From: Cytophagia bacterium CHB2
Lineage (GTDB): Bacteria; Zhuqueibacterota; Zhuqueibacteria; Zhuqueibacterales; Zhuqueibacteraceae
DNA length: 58,660 nt
Assembly (NCBI GenBank): GCA_030263535.1
Contig: SZPB01000004.1
Span: 1-58,660, forward strand
Direction of reading: 5' to 3'
Shown: positions 1-47,421 of the stretch, in pieces
Numbering within the stretch: the first letter of the stretch is position 1
Layout: every line of letters begins with the position of its first letter
Made by a program: the position numbers and the translations under genes
Notes under the pieces: generated by a model
Told to the model about the DNA's origin: nothing
Database searches by the model: none
What the model saw: the letters and a program-made list of their open reading frames with translations, nothing else

Positions 1-1160
1 GCAAAGCGGGCAACCGGCTGCGTCTCTCCGCGCAGCTCACGAACGTCGAAGATGGCTTTCAGCTCTGGTCGGGGAAATATGATCGCGATCTGGGCGACGT
101 GTTTGCAATTCAAGATGACATTGCCGCTGCGATTGTGGACAAGCTGAAAATGAAACTGGCCGGCGATCAACAAGCTCACCTCATCAAGCGCTATACGGAA
201 AATCTCGCGGCGTATAATTTGTATTTGCAGGCGCGCTTTTATTTAAACAAGCGCACCGAGCCGGGTTTGCGCAAGAGCATCACGTTTTGCGAGCAGGCGA
301 TTGCGCTGGAGCCGGGCTATGCGCTGGCTTATGCCGGTTTGGCCGATAGTTATATCTTGCTCAGTTTTCAAGGCTTTTTGCCGCCGCAAGAAGCGATGTC
401 AAAAGCCAAAGCCGCGGTGGAGCAGGCTCTGGCGATTGATGAAACCCTGGTCGAAGCGCACACTTCGCTCGGCTGCATTCACGCGATTTACGAGCACGAC
501 TGGCCGGGGTCCGCGCAAGAATTCCAGCGGGCGTTGGCGCTGAATCCGAATCATTCCATGACGCGCTATTGGCACGCGCTATGGTATTTGCTGCTCACCG
601 GGCAATTCGAGCGCGCGTTGGCCGAAACCCAAAGGGCGCTGGAGTTCGATCCGCTCTCGCTGGTGATCAACACCGGGCTGAGTTGGCAATTCTATTTGGC
701 GGGACAGAATGATCGAGCGTTGCAGAGGCTGGAGCAAACGCTGGAGATGGACAAGGATTATATTTTTGCGCGCGATCTTTTGGGCCAGGTTTACGCGCAG
801 AAAGGCATGTTTGATGAAGCGATTGCCGAGCTGGAAAAAGTCGTCGCGCTTTCGAACCGCCGCACGCTGAGCCTTGCCGCATTGGGCCATGTCTATGCAG
901 TCGCCGGCAGGAGGGATGAAGCGCAGCAGATACTCGCAGAATTGCTGGTGCTGGCACAACAAAAATATGTTTCGTCGTATGACGTCGCGCTCATCTATGC
1001 CGGCCTGGCGGAGAATGAGCAGGTATTGGAATGGCTGGAAAAAGCGTATGAGGAGCACAATTGCTGGCTGGGATTTCTCAATATCGAGCCGCGTTTTCAA
1101 ACGCTGCGGGAAGACGCAAGGTTTGCTGCCCTGCTGAAGAAGGTGGGGTTGCAGAAGTAA
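1..1160 (+). CDS. TPR-repeat protein, C-terminal part (5' end outside window)
   Basis: The open frame runs in from the window edge (codons from base 3) and ends at 1160, so the N-terminus is missing. The first residues visible contain 'LTNVEDGFQLWSGKYDRDL' followed by 'DDIAAAIV'. This segment is typical of the TolB/FlgO-like domain that precedes TPRs in large bacterial adenylate-cyclase-like or serine/threonine-kinase-linked signalling proteins. It is followed by about seven helical repeats of roughly 34 residues (for example 'EPGYALAYAGLADSYI' and 'NPNHSMTRYWHALWYLL'). The TPRs should act as a protein-binding scaffold. Which catalytic or DNA-binding domain lies upstream cannot be seen. A GTG at 99 is in frame but is internal, not a start. 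Confidence 0.85.
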   Translation, partial: KAGNRLRLSAQLTNVEDGFQLWSGKYDRDLGDVFAIQDDIAAAIVDKLKMKLAGDQQAHLIKRYTENLAAYNLYLQARFYLNKRTEPGLRKSITFCEQAIALEPGYALAYAGLADSYILLSFQGFLPPQEAMSKAKAAVEQALAIDETLVEAHTSLGCIHAIYEHDWPGSAQEFQRALALNPNHSMTRYWHALWYLLLTGQFERALAETQRALEFDPLSLVINTGLSWQFYLAGQNDRALQRLEQTLEMDKDYIFARDLLGQVYAQKGMFDEAIAELEKVVALSNRRTLSLAALGHVYAVAGRRDEAQQILAELLVLAQQKYVSSYDVALIYAGLAENEQVLEWLEKAYEEHNCWLGFLNIEPRFQTLREDARFAALLKKVGLQK

Positions 1161-1169
1161 TAAAGAATC

Positions 1170-1598
1170 TCATTCTCGCGGCGGATGCCAACCGACACGA
1201 ACCCAATGCTTGCGTGCTGGAACGATATAATCATTATTCAATTGCAGCGTGGCAACGGTTGCTCGTCCGCACGGCGTTTGGCCGATAATCAGCGAACCAT
1301 CCTCACTCCAGGCAAAATGGTCAAACCAATTTTGCGTGCGGGGATTAAAAAGAGGAACAACTTCAGTGGTGATTGGATCGAGGCCATGGGTGCGTGCGCC
1401 TTTATAGCCGTTGCAGAGCGCACAAGCCAACCATAGATTTGACTCAGTTGTAAGGCCGCCTGCCGCGAGAGCAATGATGTGCTCAATGTGCAATTGCACG
1501 CCGCTATAGGTTTGCGCGGTCTGGCAATATCCACAACGATATCCGGCTTGCTCGGCAACGGCGCGGCGTAAAGAATCTGGAATGTGTGATCGGCTCAT
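1170..1598 (-). CDS. HNH endonuclease family protein
   Basis: This 142-aa protein has the layout of small stand-alone HNH nucleases: a 'YRCGYC' zinc knuckle, then 'HIEHI', then 'NLWLACALCN' with the second cysteine pair, giving a Cys4 zinc-stabilised beta-beta-alpha metal finger. It presumably cleaves DNA. The final HNH histidine is replaced by the 'CALCNGYKG' context typical of this subfamily. The gene starts 3 bp after the stop of the upstream 133-aa gene on the same strand, so the two are probably cotranscribed. Its role (defence, mobile DNA or stress) cannot be told from sequence. The family call is secure; the substrate is unknown. Confidence 0.85.
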   Translation of the reverse strand: MSRSHIPDSLRRAVAEQAGYRCGYCQTAQTYSGVQLHIEHIIALAAGGLTTESNLWLACALCNGYKGARTHGLDPITTEVVPLFNPRTQNWFDHFAWSEDGSLIIGQTPCGRATVATLQLNNDYIVPARKHWVRVGWHPPRE

Positions 1599-1601
1599 GG
1601 C

Positions 1602-2003
1602 TCATGGTTGAGGAACGGGATAGCCGCGTTGATGCAACAAGGCATACGCCTGCGATTTTAAAAGTGTAAGCCGGCCAGCTTGACGGTGCAATTCTTCCAA
1701 GTGGCGAACTTCATCCGGCATCAGTTGCCGTTCGGCTTGTGCGTCGAGCAAGTCGTGCAACAAACGCTCACGTTCCGCTTCCATTTGACGGCGCGCCACT
1801 TGCCATAAATCAGCATCAGGTAATGCCGATAATTTGGCCATTTCCGCCGCCAGATCTGCCGGCGCCTCATCCAATGCCGGCAGGGCGGTGTTGAGTGTGG
1901 CTTCCAAGACTTCCTCAATCGAGCGATTTAAGAGTGTGGCAGCGCGCCGCGCCCGTTGATAGGTGGTGTCGGGCAACGTGAGGGTAATGGAATTGGCTGA
2001 CAT
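1602..2003 (-). CDS. Small helical protein, possible antitoxin-like partner of the HNH gene
   Basis: A 133-aa soluble protein. It begins with a short strand ('SITLTLPDTTYQRARRAA') like the ribbon-helix-helix start of many antitoxins. The rest is almost entirely helical and charged, with heptad-like leucines ('MEAERERLLHDLLDAQAERQ'). It lies immediately upstream of the HNH nuclease with a 3-bp gap, so the pair looks like an operon. I do not recognise a named family. An antitoxin or DNA-binding partner role is inferred only from the N-terminus and the linkage. Confidence 0.65.
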   Translation of the reverse strand: MSANSITLTLPDTTYQRARRAATLLNRSIEEVLEATLNTALPALDEAPADLAAEMAKLSALPDADLWQVARRQMEAERERLLHDLLDAQAERQLMPDEVRHLEELHRQAGRLTLLKSQAYALLHQRGYPVPQP

Positions 2004-2211
2004 GGAAGAAACCTCTATCTCAAATTGAAATGAAGTGGATTCGTATATCTTGTCTCATCTTGCTAAACAAAATTTAGCTGATTCAGATTCCAATCGCAAA
2101 GGAAATTTCGAGGAGGTACGATCATGGCAAGAACCTCCACGCCATTTCTACAAAGGTTCTCAAGTTTGCGACAAGGTTTGTTGCGCTGCTGAAGAAAGTG
2201 AGGTTATATCA

Positions 2212-5200
2212 ATGAGAATTCAAATGACAGCGGTTTTTAATTGGATGGGCAGGTTTGCCGCCCCCGCTTGTAGGCGGCTGTCGAAGCCAATAAATACGAG
2301 ATTGCAACGATGCCCCACAAGAAGTTTAAGGAGAATTTTCGCTATTGTTTTTTTCTTCGGCATTTTGCCATCTGCAGCTTCCTCGCAAAATGAAACTATC
2401 ACCACGAAGTCGCCACGCGACATAAAGTTTGAACACCTCTCCATGGAAGAAGGGCTTTCTAATCCTAATGTTGTAAAGGTATTGCAAGATAGCAGGGGAT
2501 TTTTATGGGTCGCCACGAGGCATGGCCTCAACAGATATGATGGATTTCGTTTTACCATTTATGAACATGATCCCGACACACCCAATAGTCTAAGCCACAA
2601 TGACCTCACGACTCTCTATGAAGTTCGTCAGGGCACATTGTGGGTCGGCACTTGGCTGGGTGGACTGAACCGTTTAAACCGGGAAAGCGAAACCTTCGAT
2701 CATTTCCGACACGACCCTAACGATTCTACGACCATCAGTCATAATGACATAAGGTGTATTTATGAAGACAGTGAAGGAATGCTCTGGGTTAGCACGCGAG
2801 GCGGTGGGCTAAATCTTTTTGATCGAGCGAATGAAACATTTCAACGCTTTCAGCACGAGCCCGATAATCCGCAAAGCATAAGCAGCAACTTTGTTGTAAA
2901 TATTTATGAAGATAATCAAGGAGTGCTTTGGCTTGGAACGGGTAGCGGCCTAAACAGCTTTGACCGGAAGAGTAGAACATTTCGCCATTTCAAGCATGAT
3001 CCTCAAAATCCTCAAAGTTTAAGCCACAGTGCAATTACGGCCATCCATGAAGATCGCCAAGGAATTTTTTGGATTGGAACGGTGAATGGATTGAACAGCT
3101 TTGATCGACAAAGCCAAACCTTTCTTCATTTCATGCATGATTCCCTAAATCATAACAGTCTGATCGATAACGCGGTTCGGGTTATCGAGGAAGATCACGA
3201 GGGAATGCTCTGGATCGGAACGAGTGATGGCGTAAGTCGCTATGACCCTAAAAGAGAAGTCTTTTGGCATTTCAGGTTTGATCCCCAAGATCCGACAAGC
3301 CTGCGCAGCAATGCCATTCGTGATATCTATTCAGATCGTTCTGGAATTTTGTGGGTGAGTTGCGAGAAAGGAGGCGGCCTTAATAAATACGATCGCAGCA
3401 ATGAATTTTTCCAAAATTACGAACAGATTCCTCGCGATCACATGAGTTCGAAGGAAAATACTGTTTGGGCTATCCTCGAAGCTCGTTCAGGAGTCGTGTG
3501 GTTGGGTGGTCAGGGGGGGGTAAATAGATTTGACAGAACAACCAAAGCCTTTCGATATTATAAAACTGGTCCTAAGAATCCTTTAAATTCAAGCTTCAGT
3601 AATGTTTATGTCGAATCGATCTGTGAAGACCAACAGGGGAAATTATGGATTGGCATGCTTAACGGTGGTTTGAGTTACTTTGACGAAAAGAGAGACGCTT
3701 TTCAACTTTATGAAACCGCATTTCAAACTGGGGTAAATTTGAATCGTGCTTCGGTTATGACTCTTTACAAAGATCGTTCGGGCATTATATGGCTGGGCGT
3801 GTACAGCAGAGGCCTTTATCGTTTTGAGCCAGAAAATGGCAATCTTCTTCAATACAAACACGATCCTCGTGATTCAACCACGTTGAGTAATAATGACGTT
3901 AGGTGCATTTATGAGGATAATAAAGGAGCGCTTTGGGTGGGCACCAACGGCGGCGGATTAAACATACTTGATCGCAATACCAAAACTTTCCGTCATTACA
4001 AACATGATCCGCGGAATCGGGCAAGCATCAGCGGCAATTCTGTTATGATCATTCATGAAGATCAGAAGGGCAATTTTTGGTTAGGCACCTACGGCACGGG
4101 GTTGAATCGTTTTGACCGAGCCACTGAAACGTTTATCCGCTATGGAAAAAAAGATGGGCTATCTCATGAAACCATAAGCGGAATTTTAGAGGATGACCGG
4201 GGAAACCTTTGGCTTAGTACGTTTAGTGGTATTTCAAAATTTAGCCTGAAAGGCAACTCTTTTAAGAACTACGAGATTCGCGATGGGCTGAAGATCGCTG
4301 GATTTTTGCCGCGTGCTTATTGTAAAACCCGTAATGGAGAGATGCTCTTCGGGAGTGAAAATGGTTTTTATGTATTTCACCCTGACAGCGTAAAAGACAA
4401 TCCTTATATACCATCGGTCGTCATTACGCAATTCAAACGATACAACACGGATGATGAAGAAGGAATAGCCATTGAAGCAGTGGGTATTTCTGAAAAAGAG
4501 CAAATCGAACTAACGTATAAAGACAATATTCTGACCTTCGAGTTTGCCGCATTGAATTTTATTCGTCCCGAAAAGAATCAATACGCCTACAAAATCGAAG
4601 GCTTCAACGACAATTGGATTCACCTCGGCACCAAGCGCGATGTCACTTTCACCAACCTCGATCCGGGCGAATACACCCTGCGCGTGAAAGGCTCCAACAA
4701 CGACGGCGTTTGGAACGAGGAGGGTGCGTCACTGAAAATCACCATCACCCCGCCGTGGTGGAAGAGCTGGTGGGCGTACACGCTTTATGGGCTGATGTTT
4801 GCCGGTGCAATTGCCGGATACATTCGCTTCAGAACGCAGGCACAGGCCAAAGAGCTCGCGCGCGAGCGGCAGGTGTCCGATCGCTTGCGGCGGGTTGACA
4901 AGCTCAAAGACGAATTTCTTGCCAACACGTCGCATGAATTGCGCACGCCGCTCAATGGCATCATCGGCATCACCGAGTCGCTGCTCGACGGAGTGACAGG
5001 AAAATTGCCGGAAAAGACGCAAATCAATCTTTCCTTGGTGATCGCCAGCGGTAAACGTCTCGCGAGTCTGGTTGATGATCTGCTCGATTTCTCGCGACTG
5101 AAGCGACAGGATCTGCAACTGCAACGCCAGCCCATTGACCTGCGCGTGCTCGCCGAGGTGGTGTTGAAATTCAGCGAACCTTTGCTCGCCGGGAAAAAAT

Positions 5201-38106: not shown

Positions 38107-38748
38107 CTTCGACAGGCGACTCGACCGAGACTTCTGCGTGAGCGCTCAGTCGAACGCTCGTCGAGGTCTCAGTCACCGCAGATGTTCAGCCACGGCTTGG
38201 CCGTGGCTTGACTACAGCAGATGCTACGGCCAAGCCGTGGCAGAGCAAACAGGTATTTTCGATTTTGACTATCAAATTTGATCAGCAAAACCCAAGCATC
38301 TGTCATCCAGAAAGGAATTTGTGAAGCATTCCGTGCAGCGCTCAGTGCTTGACAAGTTGACCCCAACGGGGTCCGATGCGGCAGCCCACGGGCAACGCCC
38401 TGGGAACTAATGGGGACTGTCACACAAAGCCCTGAAGGGGCTGGCAAATTTTGATAAATCGATTCCCAGGGCGTTGCCCGTGGCTTTCACATTATGCCCC
38501 GTTGGGGCAGTTATTGAGGCGTTGATCCCGCTTTCGGTATTCGTTCGAAAAGTCGCCATACTTGCGCTTTGCCGCTGATTTGCTATTTTGCGGGTAACAC
38601 ACAATGCTTTGGAAGTAAAAGTATCCAAAATGCTACTGCCCGGGCGCTCAGCCATGAAGCGTGTGCAAGACTAATAACCAACAGAATCGTTCATTGCAAA
38701 CCGCCCGGGCAGTTATCCGTTACTACTCAAAAAGGGCAGCAATCGTGG
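38107..38748. other. Gene-free repeat-rich stretch before the template repeat
   Basis: No gene is visible. It holds a palindromic 'CCACGGCTTGGCCGTGG' sequence (38190-38206) whose inverted partner is at 38226-38241. The solo palindromic element annotated separately at 38359-38509 follows. A 12-bp inverted pair, ACTGCCCGGGCG near 38634-38647 and CGCCCGGGCAGT at 38702-38713, comes next; the right arm recurs at 35838-35850 before the serine hydrolase gene. Confidence 0.6.
38359..38509. repeat. Solo palindromic element related to the transposase-flanking repeats
   Basis: Two inverted copies of one ~45-bp unit face each other: an outer ACCCCAACGGGGT-type palindrome (38359-38373 and 38495-38509), then GGGCAACGCCC (38390-38400) and its inverse (38469-38479), with a small AGCCCTGAAGGGGCT hairpin between (38428-38442). 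The same units in the same order flank the transposase at 42684-43380. This is a MITE/REP-like copy without its own enzyme. Confidence 0.8.
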
Positions 38749-38879
38749 GTTCGAACCGGGTGTTGCGCGGCGGGTCCTGGAACAACAATGCGCAGAACTG
38801 CCGTTCCGCGAATCGTAACTGGAACAGCCCCGACAACCGCAACAACAATATTGGCTTCCGCCTGGTTTTCCTCCCGTAG
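38749..38879 (+). repeat. DGR template repeat (TR)
   Basis: The sequence reads as the end of an FGE/C-type-lectin domain, 'GSNRVLRGGSWNNNAQNC' then an Asn-rich run, ending 'IGFRLVFLP' and TAG. It has no gene in front of it. Over the 116-bp core (38764-38879) it matches the 3' end of the NACHT-FGE gene (41801-41916) without gaps. There are 14 mismatches, and each lies at an adenine of this copy (14 of 27 adenines changed). Ten AAY codons sit where the target has Tyr, Asp, Gly or Ser. That one-sided adenine substitution is the hallmark of DGR mutagenic retrohoming, which makes this copy the template. Homology extends upstream to 38749 with two more adenine changes and two others. Confidence 0.92.
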
Positions 38880-39136
38880 CTCATAGGGTAAAGTCGGAGG
38901 ACTGCCTCTGAACAGATTGCTGTCCCGTTCGTCCGGCACGGGAGCGCGGACATTCCTGTCCGCGATAAACGTTGCGCGGACGACAAACAGCGGTGCAAAT
39001 GCCCGGTGCTGGTAGGGCAAATGGATTTTTGCTTCGAAAGCTCCGGGCATTGGTTTTGTTGGTATAAAAAAACGAAATTTTTATATTGAACATTCTCGGG
39101 TGTGTAAAATAGACAGATCATCGTACTGGGACAACC

Positions 39137-39601
39137 ATGAAAACCGAATCTCAGAAACCATTATTTCGCGTCTTTGTCAGTTCGACTTATATTGATTTAG
39201 TCGAGTACCGCAAGGCGGCGGAAAAAGCCATTAACGACCAGCGCCAAAAATATGAAGGCATGGAGTATCTGGGCGCGATGGATAAAGAGCCAACCAAAGC
39301 CTGCCTGGATTTGGTCGAAGACTGCAATCTTTTTATCGGCATTTATGCCTGGCGTTACGGCCATGTTTCGGACGGCGCTGAGATTTCCATCACCGAACTG
39401 GAATATCAACATGCGAAAAAACTGGACATTCCCTGCCTGTGCTATTTTGTGGACGAAGATTTTCCCTGGCTGAAGAAATTCATTGAGACCGGTGTTGCCG
39501 AAGAAAAGTTGAGCGGTTCAAAAGCCAAATTTCCAAAGAGCATGTGCGCACCAGTTTTAAAGAACCGCTGCATTTGGAAAGAAATATCATCAGTGACCTG
39601 A
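39137..39601 (+). pseudogene. DUF4062 N-terminal part of the DGR target, separated by a frameshift
   Basis: From ATG 39137 (GGGA upstream) the frame encodes a DUF4062 domain: 'FRVFVSSTYIDLVEYRKAAE', 'CLDLVEDCNLFIGIYAWRYG', 'SITELEYQHAKKLDIPCLCY'. It runs out of frame near 39508 and stops at 39601. After 39508 the continuing family sequence ('[19 protein letters not shown]') is in the frame of the following ORF. One base appears to be missing in 'AAGTTGAGCGG'; inserting a G would restore 'EEKLERFKSQI'. The original gene therefore was DUF4062-NACHT-FGE (39137-41916). Recent mutation, sequencing error or deliberate recoding cannot be told apart here. Confidence 0.85.
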
Positions 39602-41916
39602 GTAATTGGCTGGCAGATAACCGGCCCGGTCTGAAGCGAGAAGCGCTGAAACCGGGGCAGGATCCGGTCGCGATGTACAAAAAAGCCCTCGCAGAAAAAT
39701 ATGCCAGCTTGAACATGATTGGCTTCAAGCGCAGTTTTGCGATGGACAGCATCTATATTCCCTTGACCGTACACGTCGATCCCGAATTGCGTATTGTCGA
39801 CCAGGCTGGGGAACGGCTCGAAAAACTCGCAACGCGTTCACTTACAGCCGAAGATCTGCTGGAGCTTCCCAATAAAGCCGCGGTGGTTTTGGGCGAGCCG
39901 GGCATGGGCAAAACCACCATGCTGCATTATCTGGCGCGCCGGGAAAGCCAAAAGGCCGCGGCGCTTTTTCCCATTTTCGTGAAGCTGTCGGATTTTGGCA
40001 AAACCCGCGAGCCGCTGGAAAACTTTTTGCTCGCGGCGGTGGAAAATCATATCCCCGGCGCTACCATGCACGACGCCGCCCAAAATGCCATCGACACCCA
40101 ACATGCACTCATCTTGCTGGATGGCCTGGATGAAGTGAGCCGTGAGAAATATACTTCTGTGACCGAGCGGATTCGCGCTTTTGTGGCCGGCCATCAATAT
40201 TGCCGGGTGATCATCACCTCGCGCAAGGCCGGGTTTCAAAGCGATCAGACGCCGTATCGTCTTTTTGAAATCGACAAATTGCCCCTAGCGGAAATTGCCA
40301 ACTTCGTACACAAATGGTTTGAACAAAAAAACGACCTTGCCGGGCGCATTGCCGCCAATCGCCGGATTTACGAGCTGGCGCAGAATCCATTCTTGCTCTC
40401 CATTATCTGCTTCATCTTTGAAAAGTATCGTGACCTGCCGCAGCGCCGGTTGGAGCTTTATGAAAAATGCGCCGTCACCCTGCTGACGTTGTATGATGAG
40501 AAGCAGGTCGACAGAGTGAACGGCTTCACGCGGCTTCTGAAAGAGCGGGTGCTGGAAGATTTGGCGCATCACTTTTTCTGCAAGGAAGCGGAGGAGTTTG
40601 CTTATGCGCCGTTGATCGAGCAGGTGGCGCAGACCCTGGCCACAATGAAACGGAACGACAACGAGGAAGAGGTGCTGCGGGAAATCCGCGAAAACAGCGG
40701 GCTGCTGCAAAAAAGCGATGATCGCCATCTGTTTGTGCATCGCACCTTTTATGAATATTACGTCTCCTGCAAAATGCGCGGCGAGACGCCGGAAGCGGTG
40801 TTAGGCCGATCGACGCAATCGCGTTGGGAGGAACCCATTCGCCTGTACGCCGCGCAAATTCAAGCAGTAACCGAAGGCACCCACTTTATCAAGCAACTTT
40901 GGGAAAAAGATCGGGCCCTGGCTCTGCGTTGTTATCCGGACATGGATCGCGTGGTGGAACCTGATCTGATCAGAAATTTATTGAATGAAGCAAAGGTGGA
41001 AGAGCGCGTCGAGCTCGTGAAAGGCCTACCCGAAAAAATATCCGAGCCTGACAAGATCGTTGAAACTCTGCGTGAATTGTTTCGTTGGGAAACTAACGGC
41101 GAGGTAATTTATTGGGGCGCGCAGATTCTCGAAGCCAAAAAAGACACGCCCGGCGCATTGGAGATTGTCCGGCAAAAATTGGATGAGGGCGCGCGACAAC
41201 GTTATGAAGAATATCTGGCCAAAGACATGGCGCCTATTGCCGCGGGTCAATTCAAAATGGGAAGTCCTAAAAATGAAGCGGAGAGATTCGAAGATGAAAT
41301 CCAGCATCAAGTTAAAGTGGGAGATTTTTTGATCAGCCGTTATCAGATCACCAACCGGTTGTACGAGTTGTTTGACCCGAACCATCGCTCGCGGCGCGAT
41401 GAATATTCCGACCGAGACGAGCAGCCGGTGATTTATGTTAACTGGTATGAAGCCGTTATGTTCTGCCGCTGGCTGGGCTGCCGGTTGCCGACCGAAGCCC
41501 AGTGGGAATATGCCTGCCGCGCCGGAACGACGACACCGTTCAATACCGGCGAAAACCTGGCGACCGAGCAGGCAAATTACAACGGAAACTATCCGTATAA
41601 GAATTTTCCCAAAGGTAAATATTTGCAGAAAACCAAGCCGGTGGGCAGCTATCCGCCCAACGCGTGGGGGCTTCACGATATGCACGGCAATGTTTTTGAA
41701 TGGTGCCAGGATTGGTATGGCGAAAAATACTATGATGAATGCAAAAAGAAAGGCACTGTAGAAAATCCTACTGGGCCGGAAACTGGTTCTCGCCGGGTGA
41801 TGCGCGGCGGGTCCTGGTACGACTATGCGCAGAACTGCCGTTCCGCGGATCGTGACTGGGGCAGCCCCGACGGCCGCGACTACTCTGTTGGCTTCCGCCT
41901 GGTTTTCCTCCCGTAG
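39544..41916 (+). CDS. NACHT-family STAND NTPase with C-terminal FGE/SUMF1 domain, the DGR target protein (main part)
   Basis: The open part begins before GTG 39544 in the same frame (coding from ~39510) and ends at 41916; 790 aa from the GTG. NACHT NTPase: Walker A G117-EPGMGKT, Walker B '[11 protein letters not shown]' (189-199), 'RVIITSRK' sensor, and 'VHRTFYEYY' winged-helix-side motif. A helical arm follows. From residue 562 ('[14 protein letters not shown]') it is an FGE-sulfatase/SUMF1 (C-type lectin fold) domain with '[15 protein letters not shown]' and '[14 protein letters not shown]'. The last 38 residues are the DGR variable repeat. NACHT proteins of this build are STAND sensors, many anti-phage. 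The diversified lectin fold would be the ligand-binding face. It acts in the cytoplasm, as no signal peptide is seen. Confidence 0.9.
41801..41916 (+). repeat. DGR variable repeat (VR)
   Basis: The 3' end of the FGE domain, aligned without gaps to the template at 38764-38879 (offset 3037). Codon changes relative to the template: AAC to TAC, GAC, GGC; AAT to TAT, GAT, TCT; ATT to GTT. The protein '[20 protein letters not shown]' replaces an Asn-rich template. The final 27 bp up to TAG are identical, as expected of the initiation region for mutagenic homing (IMH). Confidence 0.92.
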
Positions 41917-42236
41917 TTCACCCTGTGAAATAGTGAATTTCTTATGTCTTATTTTTATGTTTATGTCCTTCAAAGCGAAACGGATAATCAGTTTTATACA
42001 GGGTATACGTCTGATATACGTAAGCGCTTAGAAGAACATAATGCCGGGCTTGTTCATTCAACAAAGAATCGAAAGCCTTTGAAATTGGTATATTTTGAAG
42101 GTTGTCTCAATCAACAAGATGCGACACATCGGGAAAAATACTTGAAAACAACTTACGGCAAAAGATACCTCAAGGAAAGGTTGAAGAATTATTTCACAGG
42201 GTAAAGTTGGCAGTTCCTTCCGGCTTTACCCTGTGA
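41917..42236 (+). mobile_element. GIY-YIG cassette inserted directly behind the variable repeat
   Basis: Near-perfect 16-bp inverted repeats bound the cassette (41917-41932 and 42190-42205, one mismatch), and TTCAC occurs at both edges (41917-41921, 42193-42197). Removing the insert gives TAGTTCACAGGGTAAAGTTGG, which aligns with TAGCTCATAGGGTAAAGTCGG right after the template repeat (38877-38897). The right edge also forms a 13-bp stem (42194-42206 with 42224-42236) that may end transcription. Confidence 0.65.
41944..42204 (+). CDS. Small GIY-YIG nuclease-domain protein
   Basis: An 86-aa single-domain protein: 'FYVYVLQSETDNQFYTGYT' supplies the GIY-YIG-type strands, 'DIRKRLEEHNAG' the catalytic Arg helix, and 'ATHREKYLKTTYGKRYLKER' the region with the metal-binding Glu. 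It belongs to the small stand-alone (UhbP/UPF0213-like) group that is often scattered through genomes of candidate phyla. It could promote its own spread by DNA nicking, or be a repair nuclease. It begins 28 bp after the target's stop codon. Confidence 0.88.
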   Translation: MSYFYVYVLQSETDNQFYTGYTSDIRKRLEEHNAGLVHSTKNRKPLKLVYFEGCLNQQDATHREKYLKTTYGKRYLKERLKNYFTG

Positions 42237-42414
42237 GCAGGCGAGTTGTTTGAGCGGAATGAACGAGGCGCGAGGGACGAGCGCCGAGTGAAATGGAGCG
42301 AGAACAACGAGTCCGTTTGTAAAGATCGTTTGTAGTAACGCCTTCAGGCGCTTAACTTGCGCCGAAGGCCCGACGCCTAAAGGCGAAACTACGAACTATT
42401 TTCAAAAAATAACC
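42205..42414. other. Gene-free repeat region between the cassette and the DGR accessory gene
   Basis: It holds the right stem of the cassette, a GC-rich segment (GCGAGGGACGAGCGCCGAGT near 42270) and a palindromic 'GTAACGCCTTCAGGCGCTT' unit (42334-42353) that recurs at 45628-45646 downstream of lexA. No coding signal is seen. Confidence 0.55.
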
Positions 42415-42678
42415 ATGCAAATCAAACTCTTCACCATCCCGGTCGGCGACAGCGGCGCGGCGCAGGAAGAAATGAACCGTTTCTTGCGGGGCAATAAGAT
42501 TTTGGAAGTGCAAAACCAGTTGATCAGCAACGAGAACGGCACGTATTGGTGCTTTTGCGTTCGTTACATTGAAAAGGCCTTTGCTCCAACGAACGAGCAC
42601 AAAGGCAAAGTGGATTACAAACAAATCCTCGACGAAGCCACGTTTAAGAAAATTTCGAAGAGTACGAGGCTATTTTAA
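42415..42678 (+). CDS. DGR accessory protein (HRDC-type family), truncated
   Basis: An 87-aa ORF whose sequence ('IKLFTIPVGDSG', 'EEMNRFLRGNKILEVQNQLI', 'GTYWCFCVRYIEKAF', 'KGKVDYKQILDE') matches the N-terminal domain I know from accessory proteins found next to DGR reverse transcriptases. In those proteins the domain is usually followed by an HRDC nucleic-acid-binding domain. Here the frame stops shortly after 'TFKKIS', and the palindromic transposase element begins 6 bp later. The HRDC part is therefore lost. The family match is from memory; its position between VR and RT remnant strongly supports it. Probably no longer functional. Confidence 0.7.
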   Translation: MQIKLFTIPVGDSGAAQEEMNRFLRGNKILEVQNQLISNENGTYWCFCVRYIEKAFAPTNEHKGKVDYKQILDEATFKKISKSTRLF

Positions 42679-42683
42679 AAACA

Positions 42684-43380
42684 GCCCCAAAGGGGCATCA
42701 TGTAAAAGCGAAGGGCAACGCCCTGGAGGATAAATCAATCAAAACGTTCCCAAGCCCCAACGGGGCGATATAGAAACCTCTTCAATCCCGTTATCATCAA
42801 TATTGGAAGGGAGTCGCCATGCCGCAAAGCCTTGCAAGCATTCCGGTGCACTGTATTTGGAGCACCAGGGACCGCCAGCCATTCATAAGCCAGGAAATTG
42901 AAAAAGAGCTATTCAGTTATATGGTCTCCATTTTTCGTGCCTATGAATCTCCGGCGCTGACAATCAATGGGACCGAAGATCATGTGCACAGTCTTACAAT
43001 ACCGTCGCGAAAAATTACAGTAGCCAAGCTCATAGAAGAAGTGAAAAAGAGTTCATCAAAATGGATCAAAACCAAAGGTGCGCTCTATAGGAGTTTCTAT
43101 TGGCAAAGTGGTTACGCAGCATTGGGAATAGGACAATCGAACATTGAGGCATTAAAAAGATATATCGCCAATCAGAAAGAACACCATCGCCAGAAAACAT
43201 TTCAGGAAGAGTACATCGAATTCCTGAAAAAATACAACATCGAATATGATGAGCGATATGTTTGGGACTAATGATATTCGCATAGATATTCTATTTCGCC
43301 CCGTTAGGGCTTTAGAAATCTGAGGTTGAATTCTTTCCAGGGCGTTGCCCTTCGCTATTACATGTTGCCCCGTTGGGGCA
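42684..43380 (+). mobile_element. REP-associated (RAYT) transposase element with inverted palindromic ends
   Basis: The left end (42684-42766) and right end (43297-43380) are inverted copies of one ~83-bp unit: a GCCCCAA(A/C)GGGGC palindrome, 'CATGTAA(A/T)AGCGAAG', GGGCAACGCCC, then another GCCC(C/T)AACGGGGC palindrome innermost. The transposase gene lies between. The element sits exactly where the 3' half of the DGR accessory gene and most of the reverse transcriptase should be. Confidence 0.85.
42819..43271 (+). CDS. REP-associated tyrosine transposase (IS200/IS605-related, Y1 HUH family)
   Basis: A 150-aa protein of typical length. It has 'VHCIWSTRDRQPFI' at the start, the HUH motif in 'GTEDHVHSL', 'KLIEEVKKSSSKWIKTKG', 'FYWQSGYAALGIGQ', and the catalytic Tyr in 'RYIANQKEHH'. 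Such enzymes cut and join single-stranded DNA at REP-like hairpins, and the matching palindromes lie on both sides. It is intact, so it could also have mobilised the solo element at 38359-38509. Confidence 0.93.
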   Translation: MPQSLASIPVHCIWSTRDRQPFISQEIEKELFSYMVSIFRAYESPALTINGTEDHVHSLTIPSRKITVAKLIEEVKKSSSKWIKTKGALYRSFYWQSGYAALGIGQSNIEALKRYIANQKEHHRQKTFQEEYIEFLKKYNIEYDERYVWD

Positions 43381-43424
43381 GAGGGGCGGGGGGCATTTCA
43401 GGCGGTTCACAAAAAACTGAAAAC

Positions 43425-43733
43425 ACGCTAAAATTAGCACTGAAGCCCGTCTGCTTGAATCGCAATGCGCACGGGCTTCCTTTTTTGGGGTACTTGCTGT
43501 ATCCTGGTCGCACACGCCTGGCGCAGCGCAGCCGGATTCGATTTCTCAAAAAATTGCGCGGTTATGAAGAAAATTTGATATTGGGTATTTGGACACAAAG
43601 CGAGTATCAAGCTCATGTGTTGCCGCTGATCGCGTTTACCGAGCATGCTGAAGCAAAAGAGTTTCGGAAAAAAGTGAACATCGGTAAAAGTGTGTTTGGG
43701 CAAAGTCGAACTTTCGCGCGACGATGGTTTTAA
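43425..43733 (+). pseudogene. C-terminal remnant of a DGR reverse transcriptase
   Basis: In one frame, from about 43425, the sequence reads 'LKLALKPVCLN', then 'HGLPFLGYLLYPGRTRL', 'RSRIRFLKKLRGYE' and 'PLIAFTEHAEAKEFRKK', stopping at 43733. This is the conserved tail of DGR-type (group II-related) reverse transcriptases: 'G.PFLG(Y/F)...P...RL..R...RF..KLR.YE' then 'L.AF..HA'. All polymerase motifs, including the catalytic YxDD, are absent. Upstream of 43410 the frame is only palindromic repeat DNA. The last ~15 codons run into a hairpin repeat. The recognition is by motif; a profile search would settle it. Confidence 0.75.
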
Positions 43734-43767: not shown

Positions 43768-43940
43768 CTTCGCGTATCATCATCAAAAGGTACTTTGATG
43801 AGCATCCGCCGCCGCAAGCGCTTGGGGGGCATTGTTGTATTGCCCTTCACCTGGCGGAAGACAAAAGTTGCAACGCATATTCTAAATTCTTACCTTATCG
43901 AAATGCTTGACCCAAGCAATCACTATTTGCGAGATTGTCA

Positions 43941-44138
43941 ATGGAACAACTGACTATTGTTTTGCCGCCAGAGGTGGCGACTCAATTGAAATCGGCTGCA
44001 AAGAATTCTGGCGTGAAACCGGAAGATTTTTTGCTTGTCAGTCTACAAGAGAAGCTCGCCCAGATTGACACTGAATTTGTTGGAGCTATGAAGTATGTAC
44101 TCAAGAAGAACGCTGAATTATACAAACGTCTTGCGTAA
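43941..44138 (+). CDS. Small antitoxin-like protein upstream of a Doc homologue
   Basis: 65 aa from ATG 43941; an in-frame TTG at 43935 adds two residues. It starts with a short strand and helix ('LTIVLPPEVATQLKSAAKNS') of the ribbon-helix-helix kind, then 'VKPEDFLLVSLQEKL', and ends in a charged helix. Its stop overlaps the Doc start as TAATG, the usual coupling of antitoxin and toxin. DNA binding and toxin neutralisation are inferred from this arrangement. Confidence 0.75.
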   Translation: MEQLTIVLPPEVATQLKSAAKNSGVKPEDFLLVSLQEKLAQIDTEFVGAMKYVLKKNAELYKRLA

Positions 44139-44526
44139 TGAAATTTCTCAACATTTTTCAAATCTTGGAATTGCACAGACGTCTTCTTGATGAATTTGGA
44201 GGCATTTCCGGAGTGCGAGATTTTGGGGCCCTCGAATCTGCGCTTGCTCAACCGGAAATGACATTTGGAGGGGAAGGCTTATACCCCCCACGCTCATAGA
44301 CAAAGCAAGCGTGCTGGCATATTCACTCTGCATGAATCATCCGTTTATAGATGGCAACAAACGAGTCGCACACGGTGCAATGGAAATATTCCTTGTTCTC
44401 AATGGATTCGAGATCGACGCGGCTGTTCATGAACAGGAAGGACTTTTCCTCGATCTCGCCAGCGGCAAATTAAAGCGAGAAGATTTGGCAGACTGGCTTC
44501 AGAGAAGAATTGTACCATTATCATAA
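44138..44526 (+). pseudogene. Doc-type (death-on-curing, Fic-fold) toxin with a frameshift in a C6 tract
   Basis: From ATG 44138 the sequence encodes 'ILELHRRLLDEFGG', 'GVRDFGALESALAQPEMTFG' and 'GEGLYPP', then hits a stop just after a run of six C (44284-44289). The family continues in another frame with 'TLIDKASVLAYSLCMNHPF' and the Fic motif 'HPFIDGNKR', to 'LQRRIVPLS' at 44526. Four or seven C would restore the frame. Doc proteins phosphorylate elongation factor Tu. As written, no intact toxin is made, unless the tract slips. Confidence 0.85.
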
Positions 44527-46274: not shown

Positions 46275-47421
46275 ATGCGTGACGATTTGCACACCAAACT
46301 CAAGGAATTGTCCCAACGGGTGGTATACCTGCGGGACAGTCTTTGAAATTCCCAAAAAAGAAAAAGAGATTGACGAACTCGAGAGGAAAAGCGCGGCCCC
46401 GGATTTTTGGAACGACAACGAAAAAGCGCAATTGACGATGCGTGACATCGCGATGCGGCGCGAGTGGGTGGCCGCGTGGAAAAGCGTTGACCGCAACCGC
46501 CAGGATGCCGGCGTCATGTTGGATTTGGCGGAAGAAGCCAATGACGAAAGCGTGTATCGCGAAGCCGAAACCGAAATCAATGATTTTGAAAAGGCGGTCG
46601 AGGCGCTGGAATTTCGCAACATGTTGTCGGGCGAACACGATCAAAATAACGCGATCATCACCCTGCATCCCGGCGCGGGCGGCACCGAGAGCCAGGATTG
46701 GACGCAGATGCTGTATCGCATGTATCTGCGCTGGATTGAGCGCAGCGGTTTTAAATATGAAGTGATCGATCTGCAAGCAGGCGACGAAGCGGGCTTGAAA
46801 GATGCGGCGATCGAAGTGACGGGCCCGTATGCGTATGGCTATCTCAAGGCCGAAGCGGGCGTGCATCGCCTGGTGCGCATCTCGCCGTTTGACGCCAACA
46901 AGCGCCGGCATACCTCATTTGCCTCAGTGTTTGTGTTGCCGGAAATCGACAACAACGTCGACATCAAAGTCGAAGAGAAGGATTTGCGCGTCGACACCTA
47001 CCGCGCGAGCGGCGCGGGCGGGCAGCATGTCAACAAAACCTCGTCCGCCGTGCGCATGACCCATATTCCGACGGGCATTGTGGTGCAATGCCAAAACGAG
47101 CGCAGCCAATTGCGCAACCGCGAAATGGCGATGAAGCTGTTGATGGCAAAGCTCTACCAGCTCAAGCTGGAACAGGATAAATCGAAGTTCAGTGATTTGG
47201 AAAAGAGCAAAAAAGATATCGCCTGGGGCAGTCAGATTCGCTCGTATGTGTTTCACCCATACAATTTGGTGAAAGATCATCGCACCGGCGTGAGCACGGG
47301 CAATGTGCAGGCCGTGATGGATGGTGATCTGGATGAATTCATTAAAGCGTATTTGATGGGGAAACGCTACAATAAGAAGGGCGGTGCTGACGTGATGGAA
47401 GAATTGGAAATCGAAGAATAG
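46275..47421 (+). CDS. prfB: Peptide chain release factor 2, with programmed +1 frameshift
   Basis: ATG 46275 opens a 23-codon frame ('MRDDLHTKLKELSQRVVYLR') that stops at TGA 46344-46346. Translation must slip +1 at CTT-TGA to continue as 'EIPKKEKEIDELERK', 'PDFWND' and onward to 47421. The catalytic 'GAGGQHVNK' loop and the downstream 'KLYQLKLEQDKS' region are intact. RF2 reads UAA and UGA; the in-frame UGA makes synthesis depend on RF2 level. The joined coding sequence is 46275-46343 plus 46345-47421. Confidence 0.96.
46341..46347 (+). promoter_or_regulatory. RF2 recoding site
   Basis: CTTTGAA: Leu codon CTT followed by the in-frame stop TGA. A G-rich 'GCGGGAC' lies a few bases upstream (46331-46337), where the stimulatory Shine-Dalgarno-like element belongs. 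The base after TGA is A; most bacterial prfB sites have C. Confidence 0.9.

What the first reader, a model, noticed from the sequence alone, without database searches (positions are those of the whole stretch)
39490..39560. Single-base frameshift separates the DUF4062 domain from the NACHT-FGE part of the DGR target
The family sequence passes from one frame to another at about 39508, and a single missing base explains it. Combined with RT loss this suggests the whole defence-like gene is decaying, but NACHT and FGE parts remain open over 790 codons, so the break may be very recent or a sequence error.
Basis: seen in the sequence. Interest (0 to 1): 0.6.

Follow-up and report, generated by a model that had tools for sequence, protein, structure and literature searches.

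The report
Recently broken self-diversifying immune-like receptor gene
A bacterial gene that in relatives makes one immune-receptor-like protein (a TIR-like NAD-cutting effector, an NLR-type switch and a hypervariable sensor) is here one base out of frame inside the effector, at a locus whose diversifying reverse transcriptase is also destroyed, so it looks like a freshly disabled defence gene and not a new kind of gene.

Summary
The DUF4062 reading (39137-39601) and the NACHT-FGE reading (39544-41916) lie in different frames, one base apart. Conserved residues bound the break to about 39512-39517. Three relatives carry the whole gene as one open frame and a fourth is open across the junction, so this is not naturally two genes.

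Two corrections. (1) The break is not between domains: a model of the 66% identical relative and an alignment to a solved DUF4062 (KpSwz) put it in helix D of the five-strand TIR-like fold, so the effector itself is cut. (2) Apart from it the gene is not eroded: the window copy has the shortest branch in both halves and no stop in about 925 codons. The break is very recent or a sequence error.

The RT is truly lost: a RAYT/REP element with a deletion removed the HRDC part of the accessory protein and ~236 of 332 RT residues. TR and VR still differ only at template adenines (14 of 14). A nearby doc toxin gene is also frameshifted. A scan of 400 kb of the genome found no other indel break, which disfavours but does not exclude error. 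The receptor mechanism (NADase, NACHT, diversified FGE sensor) is inferred.

The parts
38764..38879 (+). DGR template repeat (TR), 116 bases
   Evidence: 14 mismatches to VR, all at the 27 adenines of the TR; TR with its 3' flank is 82% identical to the TR of an intact HRDC-RT-TR locus, G031:C19
39137..39601 (+). ORF A: TIR-like DUF4062 effector reading up to about 39514, then about 28 out-of-frame codons
39167..39415 (+). Pfam DUF4062 core (model 1-82), with the conserved SITE glutamate (residue 87 of ORF A) that aligns with SFTE of KpSwz
39512..39517 (+). site of the one-base frame break, in helix D of the TIR-like fold
   Evidence: frame A reads EEKLS, frame B reads [11 protein letters not shown]; relatives read (K/A)L-x-x-FK
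39556..39562 (+). in-frame heptamer T TTA AAG (fits X XXY YYZ) in the overlap of the two open frames; probably chance
   Evidence: 0.22 such sites expected in an overlap of this length; no RNA structure over shuffles (z 0.48)
39544..41916 (+). ORF B: remainder of the TIR-like fold, NACHT, helical region, FGE-type sensor (frame open from 39487)
39883..40326 (+). NACHT NTPase domain, Walker [10 protein letters not shown] and Walker [10 protein letters not shown] intact
41221..41904 (+). FGE/SUMF1-type C-type-lectin-fold sensor domain
   Evidence: E 6.4e-55
41801..41916 (+). DGR variable repeat (VR) at the 3' end of the gene
42415..42660 (+). remnant of the HRDC-type DGR accessory gene (residues 1-82 of 152; the HRDC domain, residues 80-140 in the relative, is lost)
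42684..43379 (+). RAYT (Y1_Tnp transposase ORF 42819-43271) flanked by inverted REP elements, sitting where the RT should be
   Evidence: Y1_Tnp E 3.9e-23; inverted repeats I2, I3; scattered REP-like matches on other contigs, RAYT single-copy
43410..43685 (+). remnant of the DGR reverse transcriptase (residues 237-328 of 332; catalytic core gone)
   Evidence: 61% identical to the RT of L029

Best explanation
The locus is a DGR whose target is an NLR-like (STAND) receptor: an N-terminal DUF4062 TIR-like NADase effector, a central NACHT NTPase with helical region, and a C-terminal FGE-fold sensor whose tail is rewritten by mutagenic retrohoming. In intact relatives it is one polypeptide that, by inference, binds an invader molecule through the diversified sensor, oligomerises through NACHT, and brings TIR-like domains together to deplete NAD+. 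In this genome a one-base change at about 39512-39517 cuts the effector after its fourth strand. ORF A makes an effector lacking most of helix D, strand E and helix E; the NACHT-FGE part, if made from an internal start, has no working effector. The DGR can no longer rewrite the sensor with its own enzyme, because a RAYT/REP insertion with deletion removed most of the RT and the HRDC domain. Both lesions are recent, and their order cannot be told. Shown: frames, break site, orthologue structure, TR/VR pattern, RT loss, constraint. Inferred: NADase activity, sensing, loss of function in the cell.
For: One ORF in L029 (949 aa, 66% identical), G045 (60%) and G060 (58%) (identities to L029 for the last two); one frame through the junction in G043 (partial); in G013 the gene is cut only by a contig end. 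TIR homology to KpSwz (10wc) runs across the break (profile 9-157, E 2.2e-12). AlphaFold of L029: helix D 137-148 holds the break (residue about 143); strand E and helix E follow at 154-179. NACHT part resembles NOD2/NLRC4 (Z 19.4 and 18.6), FGE part Z 13.4. DUF4062 is an experimentally shown TIR-like NADase family (PMC13174449). DGR-diversified NACHT-CLec targets are proposed antigen sensors (PMC10907252). Recency: window branch 0.126 against 0.16-0.49 (first half) and 0.24 against 0.35-0.59 (second half), departures from otherwise invariant columns 10 against 24-50 in the second half; no stop in 925 codons, where neutral drift of about 2.4% would give three; no TR/VR mismatch at 89 non-A sites. 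Against pervasive sequence error: no true indel break in 400 kb of the same genome (sensitivity 225/360).
Against: No reads, no second strain and no same-species genome were available, so a local assembly or strain-mixture error cannot be excluded. A second frameshift in the window (doc toxin, run of six C at 44284-44289) can be read as local decay or as local error. Absence of any relaxed constraint is also what an error in an intact gene would look like. Effector activity is taken from homologues.
Confidence: 0.72

Rival explanations
1. The missing base is an assembly or sequencing error, or a minority strain, and the receptor gene is intact in the cell.
For: No other lesion in the gene and no relaxed constraint; one further frameshift in the window, in a C6 run; the paralogue at C53 has one too; no reads available.
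Against: The break is not in a long homopolymer; contigs of at most 81 kb among those sampled suggest a short-read assembly, where indels are rare; no indel break found among 194 long genes in 400 kb. The RT loss beside it is a real rearrangement, not a base error.
Confidence: 0.17
2. The gene is still expressed as one protein at low level by -1 ribosomal frameshifting at T TTA AAG (39556-39562).
For: A heptamer of the X XXY YYZ form lies in the overlap in the needed direction; both halves are under strong constraint.
Against: 0.22 such sites expected by chance in this overlap; the TTTAAAGAA arises from the encoded FKE residues; no structure over shuffles (z 0.48); relatives read through in one frame and have no shift; the product would carry about 16 wrong residues in helix D to strand E of the TIR fold.
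Confidence: 0.06
3. Two functional genes: a free DUF4062 protein and a NACHT-FGE protein made by re-initiation at GTG 39544 or ATG 39676, acting together or separately.
For: Both ORFs are open and overlapping, with possible starts.
Against: No intact close relative is organised that way; the break is inside the TIR fold, so neither product holds a whole effector; re-initiation more than 50 bases upstream of the stop is unusual (general knowledge).
Confidence: 0.05

Closest known systems
DGR-diversified STAND/NACHT-CLec putative antigen sensors of multicellular bacteria (PMC10907252)
   Same: Central NACHT/STAND NTPase, C-terminal FGE-subtype CLec domain holding the VR, adenine-specific TR/VR differences, sometimes TIR or peptidase N-terminal effectors
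   Different: N-terminal effector is DUF4062 (not named in that paper); accessory protein of HRDC type; in this copy the effector frame and the RT are broken
Swarozyc (KpSwz) and TEP1, DUF4062 TIR-like NADases (PMC13174449)
   Same: DUF4062 homology through the TIR-like domain with the conserved catalytic-region glutamate; TEP1, NWD1, NWD2 and NPHP3 also place DUF4062 next to NACHT
   Different: KpSwz has a portal-binding AUX domain instead of NACHT-FGE; here the TIR-like domain is cut by the frame break
Treponema denticola HRDC-type DGR and its variable proteins (PMC4891356; TvpA structure 2y3c)
   Same: Accessory HRDC gene beside the RT; FGE-type C-terminal variable domain (2y3c matched at E 3.9e-31)
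   Different: Those targets were not seen described there as NACHT receptors; the window's RT and HRDC domain are destroyed
RAYT/REP elements (REP-associated tyrosine transposases)
   Same: Y1_Tnp ORF between inverted REP repeats, solitary REP-like copies elsewhere in the genome
   Different: Here associated with a deletion through the DGR accessory and RT genes

Membership tests
Diversity-generating retroelement | TR/VR pair differing only at template adenines | tested here: met
   14 of 14 mismatches at A over 116 bases, p 5e-11
Diversity-generating retroelement | Intact cognate reverse transcriptase at the locus | tested here: not met
   Only residues 237-328 of 332 remain; two other complete DGR RTs in the genome (C5, C306) have their own TR, and trans action was not testable
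Diversity-generating retroelement | VR at the 3' end of a CLec/FGE-fold target gene | tested here: met
   VR 41801-41916 at the end of the FGE domain
NLR-like STAND receptor (effector - NTPase - sensor) | NACHT NTPase with NLR-like helical region | tested here: met
   PF05729 over cut-off; L029 model matches NOD2 Z 19.4, 372 aligned, rmsd 7.9
NLR-like STAND receptor (effector - NTPase - sensor) | All three parts in one polypeptide | tested here: not met
   Split by the frame break in the window; met in L029, G045 and G060
DUF4062 TIR-like NADase | Sequence match to DUF4062 and the conserved glutamate | tested here: met
   PF13271 E 1.8e-22; SITE aligned with SFTE of KpSwz; invariant in relatives
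DUF4062 TIR-like NADase | Complete five-stranded TIR-like fold | tested here: not met
   Frame lost in helix D; strand E and helix E lie in the other frame
DUF4062 TIR-like NADase | NAD+ hydrolysis | not testable with these tools
   needs purified protein
Swarozyc antiphage system | C-terminal AUX domain that binds the phage portal | tested here: not met
   KpSwz match covers chain residues 5-153 of 326 only; the rest here is NACHT-FGE
Pseudogene | Disabling change relative to intact orthologues | tested here: met
Pseudogene | Relaxed constraint or further lesions | tested here: not met
   Shortest branch in both halves; fewest departures in the second half and second fewest in the first
Programmed -1 frameshift gene | Slippery heptamer conserved with stimulatory structure | tested here: not met
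   Heptamer present, but no structure and relatives need no shift

The most novel reading that the evidence does not exclude
The split is tolerated or even used: after its RT was lost, a receptor with a frozen sensor and a potentially self-harming NADase was kept at very low dose, through rare -1 frameshifting at T TTA AAG or through the NACHT-FGE half acting as a decoy, so selection still holds both halves.
Probability: 0.06. Interest if true: 0.7.

Novelty: new member of a known kind. Interest (0 to 1): 0.33.

Why it matters
The break itself is ordinary. What has some value is the intact form seen in L029: a DGR-diversified NACHT receptor whose effector is a DUF4062 TIR-like NADase, a combination for which no paper was found in the held library. 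Relatives give testable full-length proteins. The window copy, with an intact template and conserved sequence but no RT and a cut effector, catches loss of such a system soon after it happened.

Tried and rejected
Naturally separate genes: rejected, close relatives are one ORF. Chance ORF overlap: rejected by 66-67% identity of both halves to one protein. Old decay: rejected by branch lengths and conserved columns. Pervasive indel errors: a seven-state coding HMM over 522 kb gave 13 frame switches; by eye the other eleven look like adjacent or overlapping genes or spurious calls, and only the window gene and the C53 paralogue look like breaks. The HMM missed the short doc gene and finds 62% of simulated deletions in long genes, so the bound is loose. 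Programmed frameshift: weak. Plasmid collection: only short FGE or TR-like matches. PADLOC: no specific system. The AlphaFold model of the window ORF A alone was poor (pLDDT 49); its matches to nucleoside deoxyribosyltransferases and TIR domains (Z about 8) agree with the TIR/NDT relation in PMC13174449 but are weak. One search failed on a number overflow, one search was empty, and read the wrong record after A1.fa appeared; all three were redone or dropped. The metagenome collection could not be scanned. Search for other sites matching the TR in the genome found only the TR and its VR.

Full report
What was checked. The two readings exist as described: ORF A 39137-39601 with Pfam DUF4062 and ORF B 39544-41916 with NACHT and FGE domains. 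They are in different frames and both are open over 39487-39598. A single protein from another genome aligns to both, residues 14-153 to the first frame and 141-943 to the second, with 67% and 66% identity, so the switch is not a chance overlap. Frame A is family-like up to EEKLS (ends 39514); frame B becomes family-like at (R)[11 protein letters not shown] (FK from 39517). Relatives read KLNTFK, KLDQFK, KLKKFK and ALEKFK. The break is therefore within about 39512-39517 and the sequence is one base short of the family frame.

Is it naturally two genes? No. L029 (Verrucomicrobia MAG OFTM167; 949 aa), G045:C107 and G060:C438 carry DUF4062, NACHT and FGE in one open frame; G043:C437 is open through DUF4062 and NACHT to its contig end; G013 is cut only by a contig end. 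G031:C138 is also broken, by a frame change and a stop near the same domain and a further frame change later, so genes of this kind do get lost.

Where the break falls. The Pfam model covers only the first four strands. A solved DUF4062 protein, KpSwz (10wc), aligns with the relatives from the first strand through profile position 157, across and beyond the break, and the paper describes its TIR-like domain as a five-stranded sheet with five helices. The AlphaFold model of L029 (mean pLDDT 71.8) has strands at 27-33, 59-63, 82-87, 117-122 and 154-158, with helix D at 137-148; the break is at about residue 143. The effector is cut in helix D, so neither ORF encodes a whole TIR-like domain.

What the intact protein is. 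NACHT plus the helical region resembles NOD2 and NLRC4 (Z 19.4 and 18.6), and the C-terminal part resembles formylglycine-generating enzymes (Z 13.4). DUF4062 proteins are shown NADases that act in phage defence (KpSwz) and in TEP1 (PMC13174449), and the glutamate of SITE is invariant here. DGR-diversified STAND-CLec proteins have been proposed as antigen sensors (PMC10907252). From these I infer an NLR-like chain: diversified sensor, NACHT assembly, TIR-like NAD+ depletion. No step of that was tested for this protein.

The DGR. TR 38764-38879 and VR 41801-41916 differ at 14 of 116 positions, all 14 at template adenines (27 adenines; p 5e-11), with none at the 89 other positions. The RT is gone: residues 237-328 of 332 remain at 43410-43685, and the accessory gene keeps residues 1-82 of 152, without its HRDC domain. 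Between them sits a Y1 transposase ORF flanked by inverted REP elements; REP-like matches occur on many other contigs of the genome. Intact RTs exist in L029 and in G031:C19, where the order is accessory-RT-TR-target. Two other complete DGRs lie in this genome, at C5 and C306, each with its own TR and VR; whether their RTs could use this TR is unknown.

How old is the break? Trees of each half give the window the shortest terminal branch (0.126 and 0.242). It departs from otherwise invariant columns 2 times in the first half (others 1-9) and 10 times in the second (others 24-50). There is no in-frame stop in 925 codons, where about 2.4% neutral divergence would be expected to give three. Selection acted on both halves until very recently. 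The lack of non-A differences between TR and VR says the same for the RT loss.

Error or mutation? I trained a coding HMM on 522 kb of this genome. It called 13 same-strand frame switches. By eye, eleven are adjacent or overlapping genes or spurious, and two are breaks: the window gene and the paralogue at C53, where DUF4062-NACHT and FGE are separated by another one-base change. In the 400 kb sampled without regard to this family there was none; simulated deletions in long genes are found 62% of the time. Two of six NACHT genes over the Pfam cut-off are broken against none detected of 194 long genes (p 7.5e-4; without the window gene 1 of 5, p 0.025; the sample was chosen after seeing the window, and sensitivity is below 1). 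Contigs of at most 81 kb in the sample suggest short reads (inference). A doc toxin gene at 44138-44526 is also frameshifted, at a run of six C, while prfB nearby is intact. A decaying stretch of conflict and mobile genes, 38.7-44.5 kb, fits best; a local error remains possible at about one in six.

Other readings. A T TTA AAG heptamer lies in the overlap, but 0.22 are expected, there is no structure, and relatives need no shift. Separate functional genes are unlikely because the fold is cut.

Verdict. It is a recently disabled member of a known kind of system, with an effector (DUF4062) not found paired with DGRs in the papers held.

Noticed in passing
window 44138-44526: A doc-family toxin gene (Fic/DOC, TIGR01550) is split by a frame change at a run of six C (44284-44289), downstream of a small ORF (43935-44138) in antitoxin position.
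   Followed up: partly
L020 2764-5714 (G000:C53, minus strand): Paralogue with a weak DUF4062-like N-terminus, NACHT and FGE is also broken by a one-base change, at the VHRSL / EYFTARALL junction after NACHT.
   Followed up: partly
L118 (G031:C138) 639-3895: Another DUF4062-NACHT-FGE gene broken by a frame change and a stop in the same TIR-like region, plus a later frame change, in a genome that also holds an intact HRDC-RT-TR DGR (L154).
   Followed up: partly
window 41917-42205: A GIY-YIG nuclease ORF (41944-42204) between 16-base inverted repeats sits directly after the VR; single copy in the genome.
   Followed up: partly
window 42240-42310 and L029 3600-3680, 6825-6900: A conserved non-coding stretch (GTTGTTTGAGC...GAGAACAACG) follows the targets in both loci, a possible DGR target-site or hairpin element; in the window the GIY-YIG ORF separates it from the VR.
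   Followed up: no
window 38700-38880: The TR lies upstream of the target while the RT remnant lies downstream; in G031:C19 the order is accessory-RT-TR-target. REP copies at 38386-38510 and 42684-43379 may have mediated a rearrangement.
   Followed up: no
L019 (G000:C5) and L022 (G000:C306): Two further complete DGRs in the same genome: C5 with a 1033-aa NACHT-FGE target, C306 with a 613-aa target whose tail matches Lcl_C (PF07603).
   Followed up: partly
window 46279-47421: prfB: the first 18 residues of the listed ORF do not match RF2 (TIGR00020 starts at residue 19), as expected if the usual programmed frameshift near the start is present.
   Followed up: no
L029 733-9561: Intact DGR locus with two targets (DUF4062-NACHT-FGE and KAP NTPase-FGE), HRDC accessory, RT and TR; a good source of full-length protein for tests.
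   Followed up: partly
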